A stretch of 64,000 bases of DNA from Buttiauxella selenatireducens. GTDB taxonomy: Bacteria > Pseudomonadota > Gammaproteobacteria > Enterobacterales > Enterobacteriaceae. Positions within the stretch are counted from its first letter, which is position 1. Each line of letters starts with the position of its first letter. Below are positions 58,732 to 64,000 of the stretch, piece by piece. The notes beneath the pieces are model-generated. The model was not told the DNA's origin. It saw only the letters and a program-made list of their open reading frames with translations, and ran no database searches. The translations under genes and the position numbers were made by a program. The stretch lies in assembly GCF_031432975.1 (NCBI RefSeq), contig NZ_CP133838.1, positions 744,001 to 808,000 on the forward strand. The letters are read 5' to 3'.

Positions 58732-58848
58732 CCCTCACCCTAACCCTCTCCCTGATGGAGAGGGGATTGCACGGTTTTCTCCCTCTCCTGTGGGAGAGGG
58801 GATTGCACGATTTTCTCCCTCTCCTGTGGGAGAGGGTCGGGGTGAGGG
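58732..58848. repeat. Palindromic repeat cluster after gcvP
   Basis: The block begins CCCTCACCCTAACCCTCTCCC and ends GGGAGAGGGTCGGGGTGAGGG, so its ends are inverted copies. Inside, a 35-bp unit (GGGGATTGCACGGTTTTCTC plus the CCTCTCCTGTGGGAGA hairpin) occurs twice in tandem with one mismatch. It lies 14 bp after the gcvP stop. Confidence 0.85.
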
Positions 58849-58883
58849 CTTTCAGAAGGTGAAAACAACTAGCCAGCGGTAAA

Positions 58884-58947: not shown

Positions 58948-59238
58948 TTATTTTTTACCCATCTCGTCTTTAGCCATACCATCTTTGGACATACCATCTT
59001 TGGACATATGGTCCTTCGCCATGCCGTCTTTAGACATATGATCCTTAGACATTGAATCTTTCTTCATTTCATCTTTAGCCATACAGTCTTTTTTCATACC
59101 GTCTTTAGAACAGTCATGGGACATTTTCCCCATATTATCTTTAGCCATATTGTCTTTCGCCATATTATCGGCAGCATTTGCTCCTGCGGCACCAAAGAAT
59201 AAAGCCGAGCACATCAGAGCAGTGTAGAGTTTTTTCAT
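58948..59238 (-). CDS. Pentapeptide MXKDX-repeat protein, secreted, Met-rich
   Basis: A 96-residue exported protein. A signal peptide (MKKLYTALMCSALFFGAAGANA) is followed by about 74 residues made of imperfect pentapeptides of the form M-x-K-D-x (MAKDN, MKKDC, MSKDH, MSKDG and so on). The mature part has 14 methionines, 2 cysteines and a very regular Lys-Asp charge pattern. It belongs to the MXKDX-repeat family (TIGR02953 in my memory), whose function is not established. The gene is followed by its own terminator; upstream on the same strand, across a truncated ERIC, lie a molybdoenzyme and a cytochrome b gene. A role as a methionine sink for oxidants, repaired by the molybdoenzyme, is my inference. 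Confidence 0.85.
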   Translation of the reverse strand: MKKLYTALMCSALFFGAAGANAADNMAKDNMAKDNMGKMSHDCSKDGMKKDCMAKDEMKKDSMSKDHMSKDGMAKDHMSKDGMSKDGMAKDEMGKK

Positions 59239-59275
59239 TTTTTATTTCCTCGTCGTTTTATTAATAACATTGTAG

Positions 59276-59335
59276 ATACCAAAAATAATTCGAGTTGCAG
59301 CCAACACCCCTGCAACTTGAAGTATGACGGGTATA
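59276..59335 (-). repeat. Internally deleted ERIC
   Basis: A 60-bp element with both ERIC ends (ATACCAAAAATAATTCGAGTTGCA ... TGCAACTTGAAGTATGACGGGTAT) in reverse orientation, with the central ~65 bp missing. It fills the space between the molybdoenzyme gene and the promoter or leader of the MXKDX-repeat gene. Its near-perfect inverted ends make a strong hairpin. Confidence 0.85.
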
Positions 59336-59337
59336 GG

Positions 59338-60126
59338 TTAACTTCCGCCGAACCAGTTATACCCCTGATCCTCCCAATAACCTCCGGGATAGCGGTTCGT
59401 AACTTCGATAACTAAAATATGCTTTGGATTTTTATAACCCAATTTGGTTGGCATTCTTAACTTCATCGGGAAACCATATTTACGAGGCAATATTTGGCCG
59501 TCGTAAGTCAGCGCAATAATGGTTTGTGGATGCAGCGCGGTTGCCATATCAATACTGGTGTAGTAATCATCAGCACATTTGAAGCTAACGTAACGGGCAT
59601 TCAAATCGGCGCCAATCGCTTTTAGAAAAAGGGAAAACGGCACGCCGCCCCATTTGCCAATGGCACTCCAGCCTTCCACGCAGATATGGCGTGTCACCTG
59701 GCTGACCTGGGCCATTTGATGCAGTTGCGCCAGTGTCCATGGGCGTTTATCCGATATCAACCCCGCAACCTCCAGACGATAATCGTCACCTTTTATATTG
59801 GGCGCTTCATCCTCACTATAAAAAGCATTAAAAGGAAACGGACGCGTCATCATGCTTTCGGGGTAAACCGGTGCCAGGTCATTGGCATTAAATAACCAGC
59901 CCTGAATTCGGTCATTAAATCGTGATATCCGACTTAAGGTATTTTCTACCGATTCATTGCTGCTAATATCGCAGCCCGTTAGCATTATTAACCCGCCGAG
60001 CGTTAAACCTTGTTTTAAAAAACGACGACGTCCTTCAGGCGATAACTGTTTATTAATTTGCTGAGTCGCATCCTGAATGATCGCGTTTTTATCGGCATCA
60101 GAAAAAATCTTATTTTTATTGTTCAT
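59338..60126 (-). CDS. Tat-exported molybdopterin oxidoreductase, sulfite-oxidase family
   Basis: A 262-residue protein with the oxidoreductase molybdopterin-binding domain. The N-terminus carries a twin-arginine motif RRRFLK (Arg33-Lys38) and a hydrophobic run that ends in LTGC (Cys52), a lipobox, so it may be a Tat-exported lipoprotein. The molybdenum-ligating cysteine is in VTRHICVEGWSAIGKWGGVPFSLFL (Cys149), the classic SUOX-family motif; FKCADDYYTSIDM and YGFPMKLRMPTKLGYKNPKHI follow. It resembles MsrP (YedY) in overall plan but is not close enough to assign methionine sulfoxide reductase activity. It is 9 bp from the cytochrome b gene, which probably feeds it electrons. Confidence 0.85.
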   Translation of the reverse strand: MNNKNKIFSDADKNAIIQDATQQINKQLSPEGRRRFLKQGLTLGGLIMLTGCDISSNESVENTLSRISRFNDRIQGWLFNANDLAPVYPESMMTRPFPFNAFYSEDEAPNIKGDDYRLEVAGLISDKRPWTLAQLHQMAQVSQVTRHICVEGWSAIGKWGGVPFSLFLKAIGADLNARYVSFKCADDYYTSIDMATALHPQTIIALTYDGQILPRKYGFPMKLRMPTKLGYKNPKHILVIEVTNRYPGGYWEDQGYNWFGGS

Positions 60127-60135
60127 GTTTTTCCC

Positions 60136-60747
60136 TTATCGCCCACGCAGCATAGCGAGTAAAGTTCGAGGAACCAGCGCCACCATAATGAGATGAACGA
60201 CAACAAACCCGACCATCCCGGACATGGCATAAAAATGAATAAAGCGCGCCATGTCATACCCGCCGAATAATTCCCGTAACAGCGGAAACTGTACTGATTT
60301 CCATACCACAAGGCCTGAGCAAACCAGGATGATCCCGTCGATCATGACAAACAGATACGCCAATTTCTGTACCGTGTTGTAATGACTGAGATCGTTATGA
60401 GCCAGTTTCCCCCGCAGCGCGGCGATAAAATTATTGATCAACTCTCGTGGCGACAGAGGCCAAAATTTGCGTTTCAGGCGGCCGCTAAAAATATTAATCA
60501 GCAGGTAAAGCACGCCGTTAATACCAAACAGCCACATCCCGGCAAAATGCCACTGCAACGCACCGCCCAGCCAACCACCGAGCGTTAACTCATTTGGGAA
60601 ACTGAAATTAAACAGCGGTGAAGCGTTATAAATCCGCCACCCGCTGGTCACCATGATGAGTATGGCGAAGGCATTCAACCAGTGGCAAATCCTCAGCCAC
60701 AATGGATGGATTGTGGCGGGTTTAATCTGAAACGTTGGCGTATCCAT
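60136..60747 (-). CDS. Cytochrome b/b561-type membrane subunit
   Basis: A 203-residue integral membrane protein with four hydrophobic segments and histidines placed for b-heme ligation: LRICHWLNAFAILIMVTSGWRIY, LQWHFAGMWLFGINGVLYLLINIF, and ARFIHFYAMSGMVGFVVVHLIMVAL. This matches the bacterial cytochrome b561/Ni-hydrogenase b-subunit family. It is distinct from MsrQ, which is an FRD-domain protein. It is upstream of and nearly contiguous with the molybdoenzyme gene, so the two likely form an electron-transfer pair from quinol to the periplasm. The ATG at 60747 (MDTPTFQIKP) is used; the frame is open upstream across the divergent promoter. Confidence 0.85.
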   Translation of the reverse strand: MDTPTFQIKPATIHPLWLRICHWLNAFAILIMVTSGWRIYNASPLFNFSFPNELTLGGWLGGALQWHFAGMWLFGINGVLYLLINIFSGRLKRKFWPLSPRELINNFIAALRGKLAHNDLSHYNTVQKLAYLFVMIDGIILVCSGLVVWKSVQFPLLRELFGGYDMARFIHFYAMSGMVGFVVVHLIMVALVPRTLLAMLRGR

Positions 60748-60889
60748 CGTTTTATATCCGTTATTGCGTTGAAATGAGTGTGCTCTAAATCTGTTCTCCA
60801 AAGCCTCACGAAAAGTTAAATTAAATGTGATAACTCGACCGACGAATGTTGTATAGACTTCCAGTAACTGGTGGATAAAAGGCGAAGTG
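60748..60889. promoter_or_regulatory. Divergent control region between the cytochrome b and response-regulator genes
   Basis: These 142 bases must hold the promoters for both divergent transcripts. CCAGTAACTGG at 60861-60871, 19 bases before the regulator start, is a perfect 11-bp palindrome. An AT-rich stretch around 60805-60835 (AAAAGTTAAATTAAATGTGATAA) could carry promoter elements. The binding site of the regulator cannot be fixed by eye. Confidence 0.45.
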
Positions 60890-61600
60890 ATGAAGTCCAA
60901 AAAGTTATTAATTGTTGAGGATGACGAAAATATTGCTGAACTCTTGCAGCTGCATTTGCGAGAAGAAGGCTATGAAATTGTTCATGCGGCTGATGGCTCC
61001 CTGGGACTCGAACTGCTCAAGCAGGGCGGTTGGGATGCGCTGATACTGGATCTGATGCTGCCAGGCGTCGATGGCCTGGAAATCTGTCGCCATGCGCGCA
61101 CCATGACGCGTTACACGCCGATCGTCATGATCAGCGCCCGCTCCAGTGAAACTCATCGGGTTTTGGGGCTGGAACTGGGCGCCGATGATTACCTGGCGAA
61201 ACCCTTCTCAATGCTGGAATTGGTTGCTCGCGTCAAAGCGCTTTTCCGCCGCCAGGAGGCGATGAGCCAGAACCTGTTGCAGGATGCCGGAACCCTCACG
61301 TTTGAAAGGTTGACTATTGACCCTTTGGCCCGCGACGTGCGCCTCAGACAACAGCCCGTCGAGCTGACGCCACGCGAGTTTGACCTGCTGTGGTTCTTTG
61401 CTAAAAATCCGGGCAAGGTGTTTTCCCGCCTCAACCTGCTTAACCAGGTTTGGGGATATCAACACGAAGGCTACGAACACACGGTTAATACCCACATCAA
61501 CCGGTTACGCATCAAGATTGAAGATAACCCCGCAGAGCCTGAATTCATTCTTACGGTGTGGGGAAAAGGGTATAAATTCATCGCACCGCGAAACGAGTAA
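60890..61600 (+). CDS. OmpR/PhoB-family response regulator
   Basis: A 236-residue regulator. The receiver domain holds the acidic pocket LLIVEDDENIAELL, the phospho-Asp in DALILDLMLPGVDGLE (Asp54), and the conserved Lys in GADDYLAKPFSMLELVARV. The C-terminal winged helix has VELTPREFDLLWFFAKNPGKVFSRLNLLNQVWGYQHEGYEHTVNTHINRLRIKIE and the usual WGKGYKF end. An ATG at 60890 is preferred to the GTG at 60887 because AAGG lies seven bases upstream. The kinase gene follows after 3 bp. It is divergent from the cytochrome b-molybdoenzyme pair, which it may control, as HprR controls msrPQ in E. coli. Confidence 0.9.
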   Translation: MKSKKLLIVEDDENIAELLQLHLREEGYEIVHAADGSLGLELLKQGGWDALILDLMLPGVDGLEICRHARTMTRYTPIVMISARSSETHRVLGLELGADDYLAKPFSMLELVARVKALFRRQEAMSQNLLQDAGTLTFERLTIDPLARDVRLRQQPVELTPREFDLLWFFAKNPGKVFSRLNLLNQVWGYQHEGYEHTVNTHINRLRIKIEDNPAEPEFILTVWGKGYKFIAPRNE

Positions 61601-61603
61601 ACC

Positions 61604-63070
61604 ATGCGAAAACTCTCTCTTTCACAGCGCCTGACTCTGGTTTTTGCGTTGCTGCTTATTACTTCTTGCTCTCTGCTGGGGTGGCTGCAAATTCGCACCA
61701 GCACCCAGTACAGCCAGGCGGTGATTCAACAACTTTCAGGCTCTCTTGCCGAGCATATTAACCAGAGCTACCCGCTGCTTGGGCAAGACGGTCTGAATAA
61801 TGACTCTGTGCGAAATCTGTTTGACCATCTGATGACGGTAAACCCAAGCGTTGAGGTTTATCTACTTGATGATAAAGGCAATATCATTGGTGATGCCGCA
61901 CCGCCTGACCATATCAAACGTCATCGCGTTGATTTGGAACCGATCCAATCTGCGCTAAACGATCGCCAGTATCCGATCTACGGTGACGATCCGCGCAGTG
62001 TGGATGGCAAAAAGGTGTTTAGCGTGGCCCCGATGCGGCAAAACGGGCAGGTTAAAGGCTACTTGTATGTCATTTTGCTGGGTGAAAATTACAATGCGCT
62101 AGCCAGTGATGCGCAATCTAACACGCTGTTTAAAGTCGTTTTGCTCTCTATTAGCCTGGTCGCATTGCTTGGGCTGGTTGTCGGTGCGCTGGCATTTCGC
62201 TGGATTACCCGTCCGCTGCGTGCGCTTTCACATCAGGTTAATGCGCTGGAAACCGGCGGCATGACGGAGATGAAAGCGATGGCCGAACTGCCGCTGGAAA
62301 AAGGACATAGTCACGATGAGATAAGCCTGTTGCGCCAGGGCGTGATCATGATGGCGCGACGGATTTCGGAACAGTGGCACCGGCTTTCGCAACAAGACCA
62401 ACTCCGCCGCGAGTTTATTGCCAATATCTCTCATGACTTACGCACGCCGTTAACCTCACTGCATGGCTACCTGGAAAGCTTATCCGTGATGTCATCGACG
62501 CTTTCTGACGCGGAGAAAAAACGCTATCTGGAAATCGCGTTAGCGCAAAGTCAGAAAGTCCGCACACTTGCACAATCATTATTTGAATTAGCCCGTCTTG
62601 AATATGGCGTAGTGAAGCCGCAGAAAGAACATTTCTGCCTCGGAGAATTATTGCAGGACGTTTTTCAGAAATTCGAACTGATGACGCAAACGCGGAAATT
62701 ACAATTAGTGGCCGATATCCAGCCGGGCTTGCCATTGATTGACGCCGATTTAGGGATGATTGAACGAGTACTGACCAACCTGCTGGATAACGCCATTCGT
62801 CATACGCCAGAGCAAGGTACTGTTGCAGTGCGGCTGTGGAAAGAGGCTGAAAAAGTGATGGTGCAGATAAGCGATAGCGGGCCGGGGATCCCACAAGAGC
62901 TGAAAGAGGGATTGTTTGTACGCCCTTCGATTGTGAACCAGTCGCATGTGAGAGTCGGGGGTTTAGGGTTAATGATTGTGCGCCAGATGTTGCAGTTACA
63001 CGGCAGTGATATTTCGCTGGTAGAAAGGCCAGAAACCGGGGCCTGTTTCCGTTTCGCGCTGCCGACGTAA
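61604..63070 (+). CDS. Sensor histidine kinase with HAMP domain
   Basis: A 488-residue membrane kinase. TM1 lies near residues 10-28 (LVFALLLITSCSLLGWL), a periplasmic sensor domain of about 150 residues follows, TM2 near 185-205 (VVLLSISLVALLGLVVGALAF), then a HAMP linker. The phospho-acceptor is in REFIANISHDLRTPLTSLHG (His277); the N box is VLTNLLDNAIRHTPEQG, with DSGPGIP and the G2 region VGGLGLMIVRQML. It starts 3 bp after the regulator gene and forms a two-component pair with it. The sensed signal is unknown; the sensor domain lacks any motif I recognise. A hairpin terminator follows. Confidence 0.9.
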   Translation: MRKLSLSQRLTLVFALLLITSCSLLGWLQIRTSTQYSQAVIQQLSGSLAEHINQSYPLLGQDGLNNDSVRNLFDHLMTVNPSVEVYLLDDKGNIIGDAAPPDHIKRHRVDLEPIQSALNDRQYPIYGDDPRSVDGKKVFSVAPMRQNGQVKGYLYVILLGENYNALASDAQSNTLFKVVLLSISLVALLGLVVGALAFRWITRPLRALSHQVNALETGGMTEMKAMAELPLEKGHSHDEISLLRQGVIMMARRISEQWHRLSQQDQLRREFIANISHDLRTPLTSLHGYLESLSVMSSTLSDAEKKRYLEIALAQSQKVRTLAQSLFELARLEYGVVKPQKEHFCLGELLQDVFQKFELMTQTRKLQLVADIQPGLPLIDADLGMIERVLTNLLDNAIRHTPEQGTVAVRLWKEAEKVMVQISDSGPGIPQELKEGLFVRPSIVNQSHVRVGGLGLMIVRQMLQLHGSDISLVERPETGACFRFALPT

Positions 63071-63099
63071 AAACACCGTTTGCCGGGAAACGGTGTTTT
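63070..63099. terminator. Bidirectional terminator between the kinase and peroxidase genes
   Basis: A perfect 12-bp stem AAAACACCGTTT/AAACGGTGTTTT (63070-63081 and 63088-63099) has T-rich sequence on both strands and separates the convergent kinase and cytochrome c peroxidase genes. Confidence 0.85.
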
Positions 63100-63116
63100 C
63101 TCGGCGAATGGGCCGA

Positions 63117-64000
63117 TTAATGGATCGGATAAGGGGTATAGACCCCATTCAACGTTTGCAAGAACGCGACGATATCATCGACATCTTTTTGCGGTAACGT
63201 CGTGCCGACCTGGTATTTCAGCATCTCTTTCACTGCATCATCCAGCGTCGCCACGTCACCACGATGGAAGTAAGGTGCGGTCAGTGCCACGTTGCGCAGT
63301 GTGGGTACTTTCTGGCGCAACCTGTCGCGCACCTCTTTGGTGACATTCATTCGCCCGATGTCTGCGCTTGTGACGGTACCAAAACCGAAATCTTCTTTCA
63401 GCCCCAGCGGTTCAAACGAGCGACTCCCTAACGTTTTCCCTGTGTGGCAGGTGGCGCATTTATTCTCTTTAAACAGCTGATACCCGTGTTTTTGCTGCGC
63501 GGTTATCGCGCCGTCATTCCCTCGTAAATACTGATCGAACGGTGAGTCTGGCGTAATCAGTGTTTTTTCGAACTCGGCAATAGCATCGGTTATCGACGCG
63601 CCAGAAAGCCCTTGCGGATAGACGGCGGTGAAATCGCGCATCAGGACAGGATCTTTTTCCAGCTTATCGGTGATTTGTTTCCAGGATGTCGAGGCCATTT
63701 CGATTGGATTAAGCGGCGGCCCACCTGCCTGCGCCTTGAGATCGGCGGCTCGTCCATCCCAGAACTGCTCGACATTAAACACGGAGTTATAAACGGTTGG
63801 GGCGTTAATCGGCCCGATGGCCCCGCCAACGCCCTGAGAAGTCTTACGCCCGTCCACGCCACCGGCACCCAGTTGGTGGCAATGCGCGCAGGAAATAGAG
63901 TTATCACCTGAAAGGCGTGGGTCGTGATAAAGCCTCATCCCTAACGCGACTTTTTGCGCATCGACCGGCAGGGATTTTGGAATCGGCTGTACCGGCTCGT
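63117..64000 (-). CDS. Di-heme cytochrome c peroxidase (C-terminal part, runs off the right edge)
   Basis: The gene enters from the right edge and its start is outside the window; 293 residues are visible, ending in ...NGVYTPYPIH. Two c-type heme motifs are seen: ISCAHCHQLGAGG (CAHCH) near the visible N-terminus and NKCATCHTGKTLG (CATCH) in the second half. LGMRLYHDPRLSGDNSISCAHC, NAPTVYNSVFN, FWDGRA and FHRGDVATLDDAVKEMLKYQ are typical of the bacterial CCP/MauG family. It reduces hydrogen peroxide to water in the periplasm. Whether it is Ccp or the longer, quinol-linked YhjA type cannot be told without the N-terminus. Confidence 0.88.
   Translation of the reverse strand, partial: EPVQPIPKSLPVDAQKVALGMRLYHDPRLSGDNSISCAHCHQLGAGGVDGRKTSQGVGGAIGPINAPTVYNSVFNVEQFWDGRAADLKAQAGGPPLNPIEMASTSWKQITDKLEKDPVLMRDFTAVYPQGLSGASITDAIAEFEKTLITPDSPFDQYLRGNDGAITAQQKHGYQLFKENKCATCHTGKTLGSRSFEPLGLKEDFGFGTVTSADIGRMNVTKEVRDRLRQKVPTLRNVALTAPYFHRGDVATLDDAVKEMLKYQVGTTLPQKDVDDIVAFLQTLNGVYTPYPIH

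What the first reader, a model, noticed from the sequence alone, without database searches (positions are those of the whole stretch)
58948..64000. Possible periplasmic oxidant-defence module: Met-rich MXKDX protein, Tat molybdoenzyme, cytochrome b, two-component system, cytochrome c peroxidase
Five adjacent functions act, or would act, in or at the periplasm. A known system in Azospira pairs a methionine-rich peptide (MrpX) with the molybdoenzyme YedY1 to scavenge hypochlorite, and in E. coli the HprSR two-component system controls the molybdoenzyme pair MsrPQ. The arrangement here combines both ideas with different parts: an MXKDX-repeat protein as possible sacrificial methionine source, a SUOX-family enzyme other than MsrP, a b561-type cytochrome instead of MsrQ, and a divergent OmpR-type regulator. 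The peroxidase may be an independent neighbour or part of the set. The linkage as one system is inference; it replaces what follows gcvP in E. coli.
Basis: partly seen in the sequence, partly recalled or inferred. Interest (0 to 1): 0.78.

Follow-up and report, generated by a model that had tools for sequence, protein, structure and literature searches.

The report
Periplasmic methionine-oxidation defence gene module
A bacterium of the genus Buttiauxella carries a switchable gene set that probably soaks up and repairs oxidant damage to methionine outside the inner membrane; a close relative of the set is already known from urinary E. coli, and its control switch sits beside other methionine-repair enzymes in other bacteria.

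Summary
The window (Buttiauxella) holds a three-gene operon (b561-type cytochrome, Tat-exported SUOX-fold molybdoenzyme, MXKDX protein) divergent from an OmpR-type two-component system (TCS). It is not a new kind: it matches, gene for gene and in order, OrhK/OrhR-C3566-C3567-C3568 of uropathogenic E. coli (PMC8550376). The peroxidase is a separate YhjA-like neighbour. New here, by computation: (1) in the 80 closest loci the cytochrome adjoins the enzyme in 80 and an MXKDX gene follows in at least 71; (2) a conserved site of about 40 bases, containing the published OrhR site, precedes the operon in 30 of 30 loci with the TCS (29 of them trained the model) and in 24 of 50 without it; all 24 of those genomes encode OrhR elsewhere; (3) there OrhR is divergent from other methionine sulfoxide reductases (MsrB with DsbD-like/MsrA in Pseudomonas, msrPQ in a Citrobacter), with the same site. 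So OrhRK looks like a general periplasmic methionine-oxidation regulator, which supports a methionine-sulfoxide role for the module. (4) The enzyme is not MsrP, the cytochrome not MsrQ; the enzyme has an invariant Tat-lipobox and is probably a membrane-anchored lipoprotein. Enzyme activity and MXKDX as substrate remain untested.

The parts
58948..59238 (-). MXKDX-repeat protein (96 aa; signal peptide, then, counted from residue 23, 74 residues with 14 Met, 11 MxKD units, no Trp/Phe/Tyr, 2 Cys)
   Evidence: TIGR02953 88.9 bits, cut-off 41; composition
59338..60126 (-). SUOX-fold molybdoenzyme (262 aa), clade separate from MsrP; Cys149, the likely cofactor ligand (recalled from the family), invariant
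   Evidence: PF00174; MsrP model 80.1 of 207 bits; tree; invariant columns; closest solved fold 1xdq/1xdy
59971..60030 (-). twin-arginine motif to lipobox (R33 R34 ... L49-T-G51-C52, then Asp53): predicted Tat lipoprotein signal
   Evidence: R33, R34, L49, G51, C52 invariant in 39 rows; residue after Cys52 is Asp in 17 of 39 rows; Tat-lipobox pattern also in 12 of 13 clade II enzymes, in 0 of 4 MsrP
60136..60747 (-). b561/Ni_hydr_CYTB-type cytochrome b, probable electron donor from quinol; His22, His67, His117, His171, His185 invariant
   Evidence: PF01292; invariant columns in 8 rows
60797..60836 (-). predicted OrhR operator GAGTTATCACATTTAATTTAACTTTTCGTGAGGCTTTGGA; the published core TCACA-N15-TGTGA corresponds to 60806-60830 read on the + strand
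   Evidence: conserved in 30 of 30 TCS loci and 24 of 50 others; a 30-base form occurs once in the genome at up to 3 mismatches; place
60887..61600 (+). OmpR-type response regulator, OrhR orthologue (66.5% to E. coli NU14)
   Evidence: PF00072 + PF00486
61604..63070 (+). sensor histidine kinase, OrhK orthologue (47.6% to E. coli NU14); Met77 (61832-61834) of the presumed periplasmic domain invariant in 39 of 39 aligned kinases
   Evidence: HisKA and HATPase over cut-off, HAMP just under

Best explanation
An OrhK/OrhR-controlled periplasmic methionine-sulfoxide module. Oxidants (peroxide, hypochlorite or related) are sensed by OrhK at the periplasmic face; phosphorylated OrhR binds the conserved operator in the shared intergenic region and activates the cytochrome-molybdoenzyme-MXKDX operon (binding and activation published for the E. 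coli orthologue, PMC8550376; inferred here from operator and orthology). The secreted MXKDX protein presents many methionines and is oxidised in place of other proteins (inferred; reported for MrpX of Azospira, which I know only through citing papers). The molybdoenzyme, exported folded by Tat and held at the membrane by a lipid anchor (inferred from the invariant lipobox), reduces methionine sulfoxide in MXKDX and in other envelope proteins, taking electrons from quinol through the b561-type cytochrome (inferred).
For: Orthology, in order, to OrhKR-C3566-C3568 (CFT073 holds the NU14 locus at 99.5%); OrhR binding, activation and tert-butyl hydroperoxide sensitivity of the c3564-c3567 mutants are published. 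Neighbourhood conservation. Operator and co-presence of OrhR: 24 of 24 operator-only genomes, against 7 of 26 with neither operator nor adjacent regulator (6 of the 7 at 67% identity or more). OrhR orthologues divergent from MsrB (followed by DsbD-like in 15, MsrA in 10) in 25 of 30 loci and from msrPQ in 1 (families confirmed on representatives). In a 398-genome sample 20 have OrhR: 8 beside MsrB-DsbD-like-MsrA, 7 beside this module, 1 beside a Met-rich frame under cut-off. One genome has cyb-Mo-MXKDX-MsrA in a row (L257). An ECF sigma gene lies in the locus in 9 of 26 loci with neither operator nor regulator (NrsF too in 8), in 0 of 54 with operator; that regulator type controls bcrXQP and Msr genes in Bradyrhizobium.
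Against: I met no measured activity for this enzyme clade. It is far from MsrP (27.6% reported for C3567) and fails the MsrP model, so the substrate could be another oxide. In the passages read, no phenotype of a c3568 deletion under oxidant is given. Some OrhR homologues have neither module nor Msr gene beside them: 4 of 20 in the phylum sample, 3 of 30, and the 3 further homologues (55-57% identity) of the class sample. In 10 of 24 genomes of the clade the MXKDX gene was not found near the enzyme gene (6 on different contigs). Operator scores are weak (10-21) in 5 of the 8 MsrB loci of the phylum sample. The second copy in this genome lacks the operator.
Confidence: 0.8

Rival explanations
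1. The molybdoenzyme acts on a small molecule (sulfite, chlorate/chlorite, an N- or S-oxide) and the MXKDX protein is a metal chelator or acid/metal-stress protein; the regulator senses metals.
For: The fold is shared with sulfite oxidases; Met/His/Asp-rich repeats can bind copper (recalled); the regulator beside a Sinorhizobium relative is annotated as heavy-metal type.
Against: OrhR orthologues sit beside MsrB, MsrA, MsrP with the same site; the closest solved structures by sequence and fold are 1xdq/1xdy (E. coli YedY, now MsrP: name recalled), ahead of sulfite oxidases; the E. coli orthologue responds to peroxide.
Confidence: 0.12
2. All six genes including the cytochrome c peroxidase form one regulated defence unit.
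For: Adjacent in this strain, in L106 and in one relative (L033); for E. coli YhjA an abstract proposes periplasmic peroxide defence fed by the quinol pool (start of abstract seen in a search listing).
Against: Present in 1 of the 80 closest loci; in 2 of 8 Buttiauxella relatives, in one of them (L042) on the other side of the operon; the genome has one operator, not in front of the peroxidase.
Confidence: 0.05
3. The operator similarity reflects a general promoter element or shared descent only, and OrhR does not act on the Msr operons.
For: 23 of the 24 operator-only loci are one genus, Pseudomonas, so counts are not independent; direct binding was read only for E. coli; the site is weak in 5 of 8 MsrB loci of the phylum sample.
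Against: The site is absent from loci with an ECF gene and from the paralog, present in front of unrelated gene types, and contains the repeat TCACA-N15-TGTGA pointed out in the EMSA-positive E. coli promoter.
Confidence: 0.1

Closest known systems
OrhK/OrhR-C3566-C3567-C3568 of uropathogenic E. coli (PMC8550376)
   Same: Same five genes, same order and orientation, matching site in the shared intergenic region; identities RR 66.5%, HK 47.6%, cytochrome 59%, enzyme 62%, Met-rich protein 43% to NU14.
   Different: Lies at gcvP-bglA in Buttiauxella, not beside haemolysin genes as the paper says of E. coli; MXKDX repeat more regular (11 MxKD units against 1 in NU14 and 5 in the plasmid form); a second copy in the genome.
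bcrXQP + BcrS/AbcS of Brucella (PMC8315932) and mrpX-yedYZ of Azospira (as cited there)
   Same: Met-rich MXKDX-type protein with a two-protein reductase; induced by hypochlorous acid (Brucella).
   Different: ECF sigma and anti-sigma in place of the TCS; gene order X-Q-P. I made no sequence comparison with the Brucella and Azospira proteins themselves.
MsrPQ + HprSR of E. coli
   Same: SUOX-fold molybdoenzyme with a membrane haem partner under a TCS.
   Different: Enzyme in another clade, with lipobox; partner PF01292, not PF01794; regulator not HprR (162.9 of 353 bits).
MsrB-DsbD-like-MsrA operons of Pseudomonas and others
   Same: Divergent from an OrhRK orthologue with the same site.
   Different: Thioredoxin-type chemistry, no molybdenum, no MXKDX.

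Membership tests
OrhKR-C3566-C3568 system | orthologous divergent TCS, then cytochrome, molybdoenzyme, Met-rich gene in order | tested here: met
OrhKR-C3566-C3568 system | OrhR site upstream of the cytochrome gene | tested here: met
   TCACG-N15-TGTGA at 60806-60830, beside matching stretches of the two E. coli forms; the 40-base model scores 55.3 on the plasmid form but -2.9 on NU14, whose spacer is one base shorter
OrhKR-C3566-C3568 system | peroxide induction through the TCS and co-transcription | not testable with these tools
   published for E. coli only
MsrP | NCBIfam equivalog cut-off 207 bits | tested here: not met
   80.1 bits; the Citrobacter On2M MsrP scores 499.6
MsrP | groups with MsrP in a tree | tested here: not met
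   clade I (21 rows) one side of a branch 100/97, 4 MsrP 100/100 (the program warns that long branches meet)
MsrQ | ferric-reductase-like domain PF01794 | tested here: not met
   PF01292 instead, in the window and in the E. coli NU14 protein; MsrQ of Citrobacter gives PF01794
HprR | NCBIfam HprR cut-off 353 bits | tested here: not met
   162.9 bits
bcrXQP / mrpX-type ECF-controlled module | ECF sigma and NrsF anti-sigma genes beside the module | tested here: not met
   no ECF or NrsF match in any of the 30 TCS loci, L106 (99% to the window) among them; the window ORFs there are a TCS
penta_MxKDx TIGR02953 | curated cut-off 41 bits | tested here: met
   88.9 bits; the two E. coli forms reach 35.2 and 38.1, under the cut-off
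methionine sulfoxide reductase (function) | reduction of methionine sulfoxide | not testable with these tools
   inferred from genomic association only

The most novel reading that the evidence does not exclude
OrhK/OrhR is a widespread, dedicated sensor of periplasmic methionine oxidation that commands at least three unrelated repair chemistries (lipid-anchored molybdoenzyme with b561 cytochrome and sacrificial MXKDX protein; msrPQ; exported MsrB-DsbD-like-MsrA) through one conserved operator of about 40 bases, in parallel with the unrelated ECF-NrsF system that controls the same kinds of targets; an invariant methionine in the OrhK sensor domain (Met77) may be the oxidised trigger.
Probability: 0.6. 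Interest if true: 0.65.

Novelty: new member of a known kind. Interest (0 to 1): 0.5.

Why it matters
The window's module extends a virulence-linked E. coli system to an environmental genus, which suggests that its original job is oxidant defence. The regulon-level result turns a regulator known from an E. coli pathogenicity island into a candidate general regulator of envelope methionine repair, gives a sequence motif that predicts its targets, and separates a probably lipid-anchored molybdoenzyme clade from MsrP. All of this is directly testable with gel shifts, reporters and purified enzyme.

Tried and rejected
Rejected: peroxidase as a member. Rejected: enzyme = MsrP, cytochrome = MsrQ. 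The published statement that C3566 is 23.1% identical to MsrQ does not make it a member of that family: Pfam places the NU14 protein in PF01292. Rejected: paralog under OrhR control, as no operator was found in the 300 bases upstream and no second site in the genome at up to 3 mismatches of a 30-base form. Led nowhere: TCACR-N15-TGTGA alone gave 10 genome hits (6 + 4) against 13 (6 + 7) for the reversed control, so the core is not specific. My first MXKDX detector found 58 of 80 loci, probably because of start choice and strict pattern; a frame-independent scan found 71 of 80, with 11 of 227 control stretches positive. Of its 9 misses, 4 (L113, L115, L116, L120) show an MXKDX-like start in the printed window, 2 (L121, L172) have less than 300 bases downstream, 3 (L157, L162, L176) look negative. 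The structure model is moderate (mean pLDDT 75.6; TM-score about 0.5 to 1xdq), so I use it only for fold class. The Azospira paper (PMC4436054) is not held; what I say of MrpX comes from passages of PMC8550376 and PMC8315932. Literature: searches of the held open-access library listed no paper that I could recognise as linking OrhR to MsrB/MsrA or msrPQ, or as describing a lipobox in this enzyme; I read listings, not all papers, and most subscription journals are not in the library. Papers: PMC8550376 abstract, sections 9, 10, 12 and passages; PMC8315932, PMC10151825, PMC3420878, PMC9751292 passages only; all others search listing only. Rows dropped: in the kinase alignment 39 rows were kept, the window, 30 of 32 module loci tried and 8 of 23 Msr loci tried (the rest gave no kinase frame of 300 aa at over 40% identity, mostly cut by locus ends). 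L125 was left out of the site model.
Full report
What is there. After gcvP the window holds the MXKDX gene, molybdoenzyme and cytochrome on the minus strand, response regulator and kinase on the plus strand, then a peroxidase on the minus strand that leaves the window. The genome is one contig of 5.2 Mb; the nearest named relative is Buttiauxella sp. A111 (enzyme 99% identical). Of 10 same-genus relatives, 8 have an MXKDX gene over cut-off; all 8 fetched loci carry cytochrome, enzyme, regulator and kinase, 6 with both gcvP and bglA in the stretch, 1 with gcvP only, 1 with bglA only. The same genome has a second cytochrome-enzyme-MXKDX operon without a regulator, beside a gene with a YdgH/BhsA/McbA-like domain.

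It is a known kind. PMC8550376 (abstract, sections 9, 10, 12 and passages read) describes OrhK/OrhR and c3566-c3568 in CFT073: OrhR binds the c3566 promoter, the three genes are an operon, and mutants in the TCS, c3566 or c3567 are sensitive to tert-butyl hydroperoxide. The distant DNA search has matches in 351 of 5426 E. coli genomes, 292 places on chromosomes and 75 on plasmids; no place covers 80% of the query, and some are short. The chromosomal form of NU14 is found at 99% or more in 283 of 5426 genomes, in 279 over at least 80% of its length, CFT073 included. The window's proteins are 43-66.5% identical to those of NU14. I therefore take the window's module as an orthologue of that system, not a new combination.

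What the enzyme and cytochrome are. The enzyme scores 80.1 bits on the MsrP model, which asks for 207. In a 40-row tree its clade I (21 rows) is one side of a 100/97 branch, apart from 4 MsrP (100/100); the program warns that long branches meet there. Clade II (13 rows, about 35-39% identical to the window's enzyme) is not resolved as one group. The closest solved structures by profile and by fold are 1xdq and 1xdy, which I recall as E. coli YedY, now MsrP. In 39 aligned clade I enzymes the twin arginines, the lipobox residues Leu49, Gly51, Cys52 and Cys149 are invariant. Twelve of 13 clade II enzymes match a Tat-lipobox pattern; the 13th (L277) has LNGC by eye; 4 of 4 MsrP and 2 of 2 short SUOX-like proteins do not match. 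The residue after Cys52 is Asp in the window and in 17 of 39 rows, Ser in 9, Asn in 5, others in 8; by Lol rules (recalled) Asp keeps a lipoprotein in the inner membrane, so that part of the inference holds for the window but not for every row. The cytochrome is PF01292, with five invariant histidines in 8 rows; MsrQ is PF01794.

Conserved linkage. In 398 sampled Pseudomonadota genomes clade I occurs in 28, of which 24 have an MXKDX gene over cut-off, against 11 of the other 370 (Fisher 3.8e-26; genomes of one genus are not independent). Of those 24, 14 have it within 2 kb on the same strand; in 10 it is elsewhere or on another contig.

Operator. In 30 of 30 regulator-bearing loci the intergenic region scores 34-67 on a 40-base site model (gAGTTATCACATTTaATTTAAcTTTgCGTGAGGacTtGGg) that was built from 29 of them, so those scores are partly circular. 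The 50 loci without the regulator are not: 24 score 46-64, the other 26 score -1.4 or less. Elsewhere in the loci the best score is 0.5 or less in 78 of 80; the exceptions are a second copy of the operon in L170 and a site of 28.5 in L180 that I did not follow. The site contains the published TCACA-N15-TGTGA; the core alone is not specific in this genome, a 30-base form occurs once. On the NU14 promoter the ungapped model fails (-2.9) because one spacer base is missing; the plasmid form scores 55.3.

Regulator in trans. All 24 operator-only genomes (23 Pseudomonas, 1 Citrobacter) encode an OrhR at 69-72% identity elsewhere; of the 26 with neither operator nor adjacent regulator 7 have a match, 6 of them at 67% or more. 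Of 30 such OrhR loci the regulator is divergent from MsrB in 25 (DsbD-like next in 15, MsrA next in 10; the stretches are short), from msrPQ in 1, from the module in 1, from none of these in 3 (two Edwardsiella, one Alcaligenaceae). The site is found in all 25 MsrB loci when the whole stretch is read (38.2 or more; in L199 it lies more than 330 bases from the regulator). Families were confirmed on representatives (MsrB TIGR00357, MsrA TIGR00401, MsrP NF003767, MsrQ NF003831 over cut-off; the DsbD-like protein has a thioredoxin-like C-terminal domain over cut-off, DsbD_TM just under). In the phylum sample 20 of 398 genomes have OrhR: 7 beside the module, 8 beside MsrB-DsbD-like-MsrA, 1 beside a Met-rich frame under cut-off, 4 beside neither. 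Site scores in those 8 MsrB loci are 43 or more in 3 and 10-21 in 5. Three further, more distant homologues (55-57%) from the class sample have none of these neighbours. One genome carries cyb-Mo-MXKDX-MsrA in a row (L257).

Alternative regulators. An ECF sigma gene is found in the stretch in 9 of 26 loci with neither operator nor regulator (with NrsF in 8), against 0 of 54 operator loci. Of 9 fetched clade II loci with order MXKDX-cytochrome-enzyme, 5 have an ECF match (4 of these with NrsF) and 3 another two-component system. This fits print: BcrS/AbcS controls bcrXQP in Brucella, EcfF/OsrA controls Msr and DsbD-like genes in Bradyrhizobium. Two unrelated sensors thus appear each to control both types of methionine sulfoxide defence; that is an inference across these data.

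Sensor. In 39 aligned OrhK kinases (31 from module loci with the window, 8 from Msr loci) Met77 in the presumed periplasmic domain is invariant and is the only column of residues 25-185 with Met in half or more. HprS is reported to sense through two periplasmic Met residues. That Met77 senses oxidation is speculation; it could be structural.

Shown and inferred. Shown here: gene content, orthology, clade, signal-sequence pattern, conserved linkage, site, its co-distribution with OrhR, and OrhR's Msr neighbours. In print for the E. coli orthologue: binding, activation, peroxide phenotype. Inferred: methionine sulfoxide reduction, quinol as donor, lipid anchor, MXKDX as sacrificial substrate, control of Msr operons by OrhR.

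Verdict. A real, functionally coherent module, but a new member of a known kind. The wider value is the regulon picture, which makes OrhRK testable as a general periplasmic methionine-oxidation regulator.

Noticed in passing
G000:C1:452375-453214 (-), locus L292: The genome's canonical msrP has its Tat/N-terminal part in a different frame from the catalytic part (frameshift or sequencing error); msrQ behind it is open.
   Followed up: partly
window 63117-64000 and on to 64508: YhjA-like cytochrome c peroxidase (N-terminal Haem_bd plus CCP_MauG), variable in position among Buttiauxella relatives (the name YhjA is recalled).
   Followed up: partly
L043 (Klebsiella variicola plasmid, 6376 bp): A small plasmid typed as mobilizable carries cytochrome, molybdoenzyme and MXKDX genes and an IS3 element; no regulator is annotated or matched.
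   Followed up: no
L023 (E. coli plasmid): A plasmid-borne copy of the full system between transposase remnants, near an annotated autotransporter gene.
   Followed up: no
L263, L265, L270: In three enterobacterial genomes (two genera) OrhRK orthologues sit beside an rlmC-like gene and potHI-like transporter genes without module or Msr genes; their target is unknown (gene names recalled).
   Followed up: no
L180 about 1716-1755: A further site scoring 28.5 on the operator model away from the operon, possibly another target of the same regulator.
   Followed up: no
window about 58735-58860: Repeated CTCTCC...GGAGAGG stretches between gcvP and the MXKDX gene, looking like REP-type elements.
   Followed up: no
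L132: A contig labelled Chryseobacterium sp. carries the enterobacterial-type module; probably a mislabelled or contaminated assembly.
   Followed up: no
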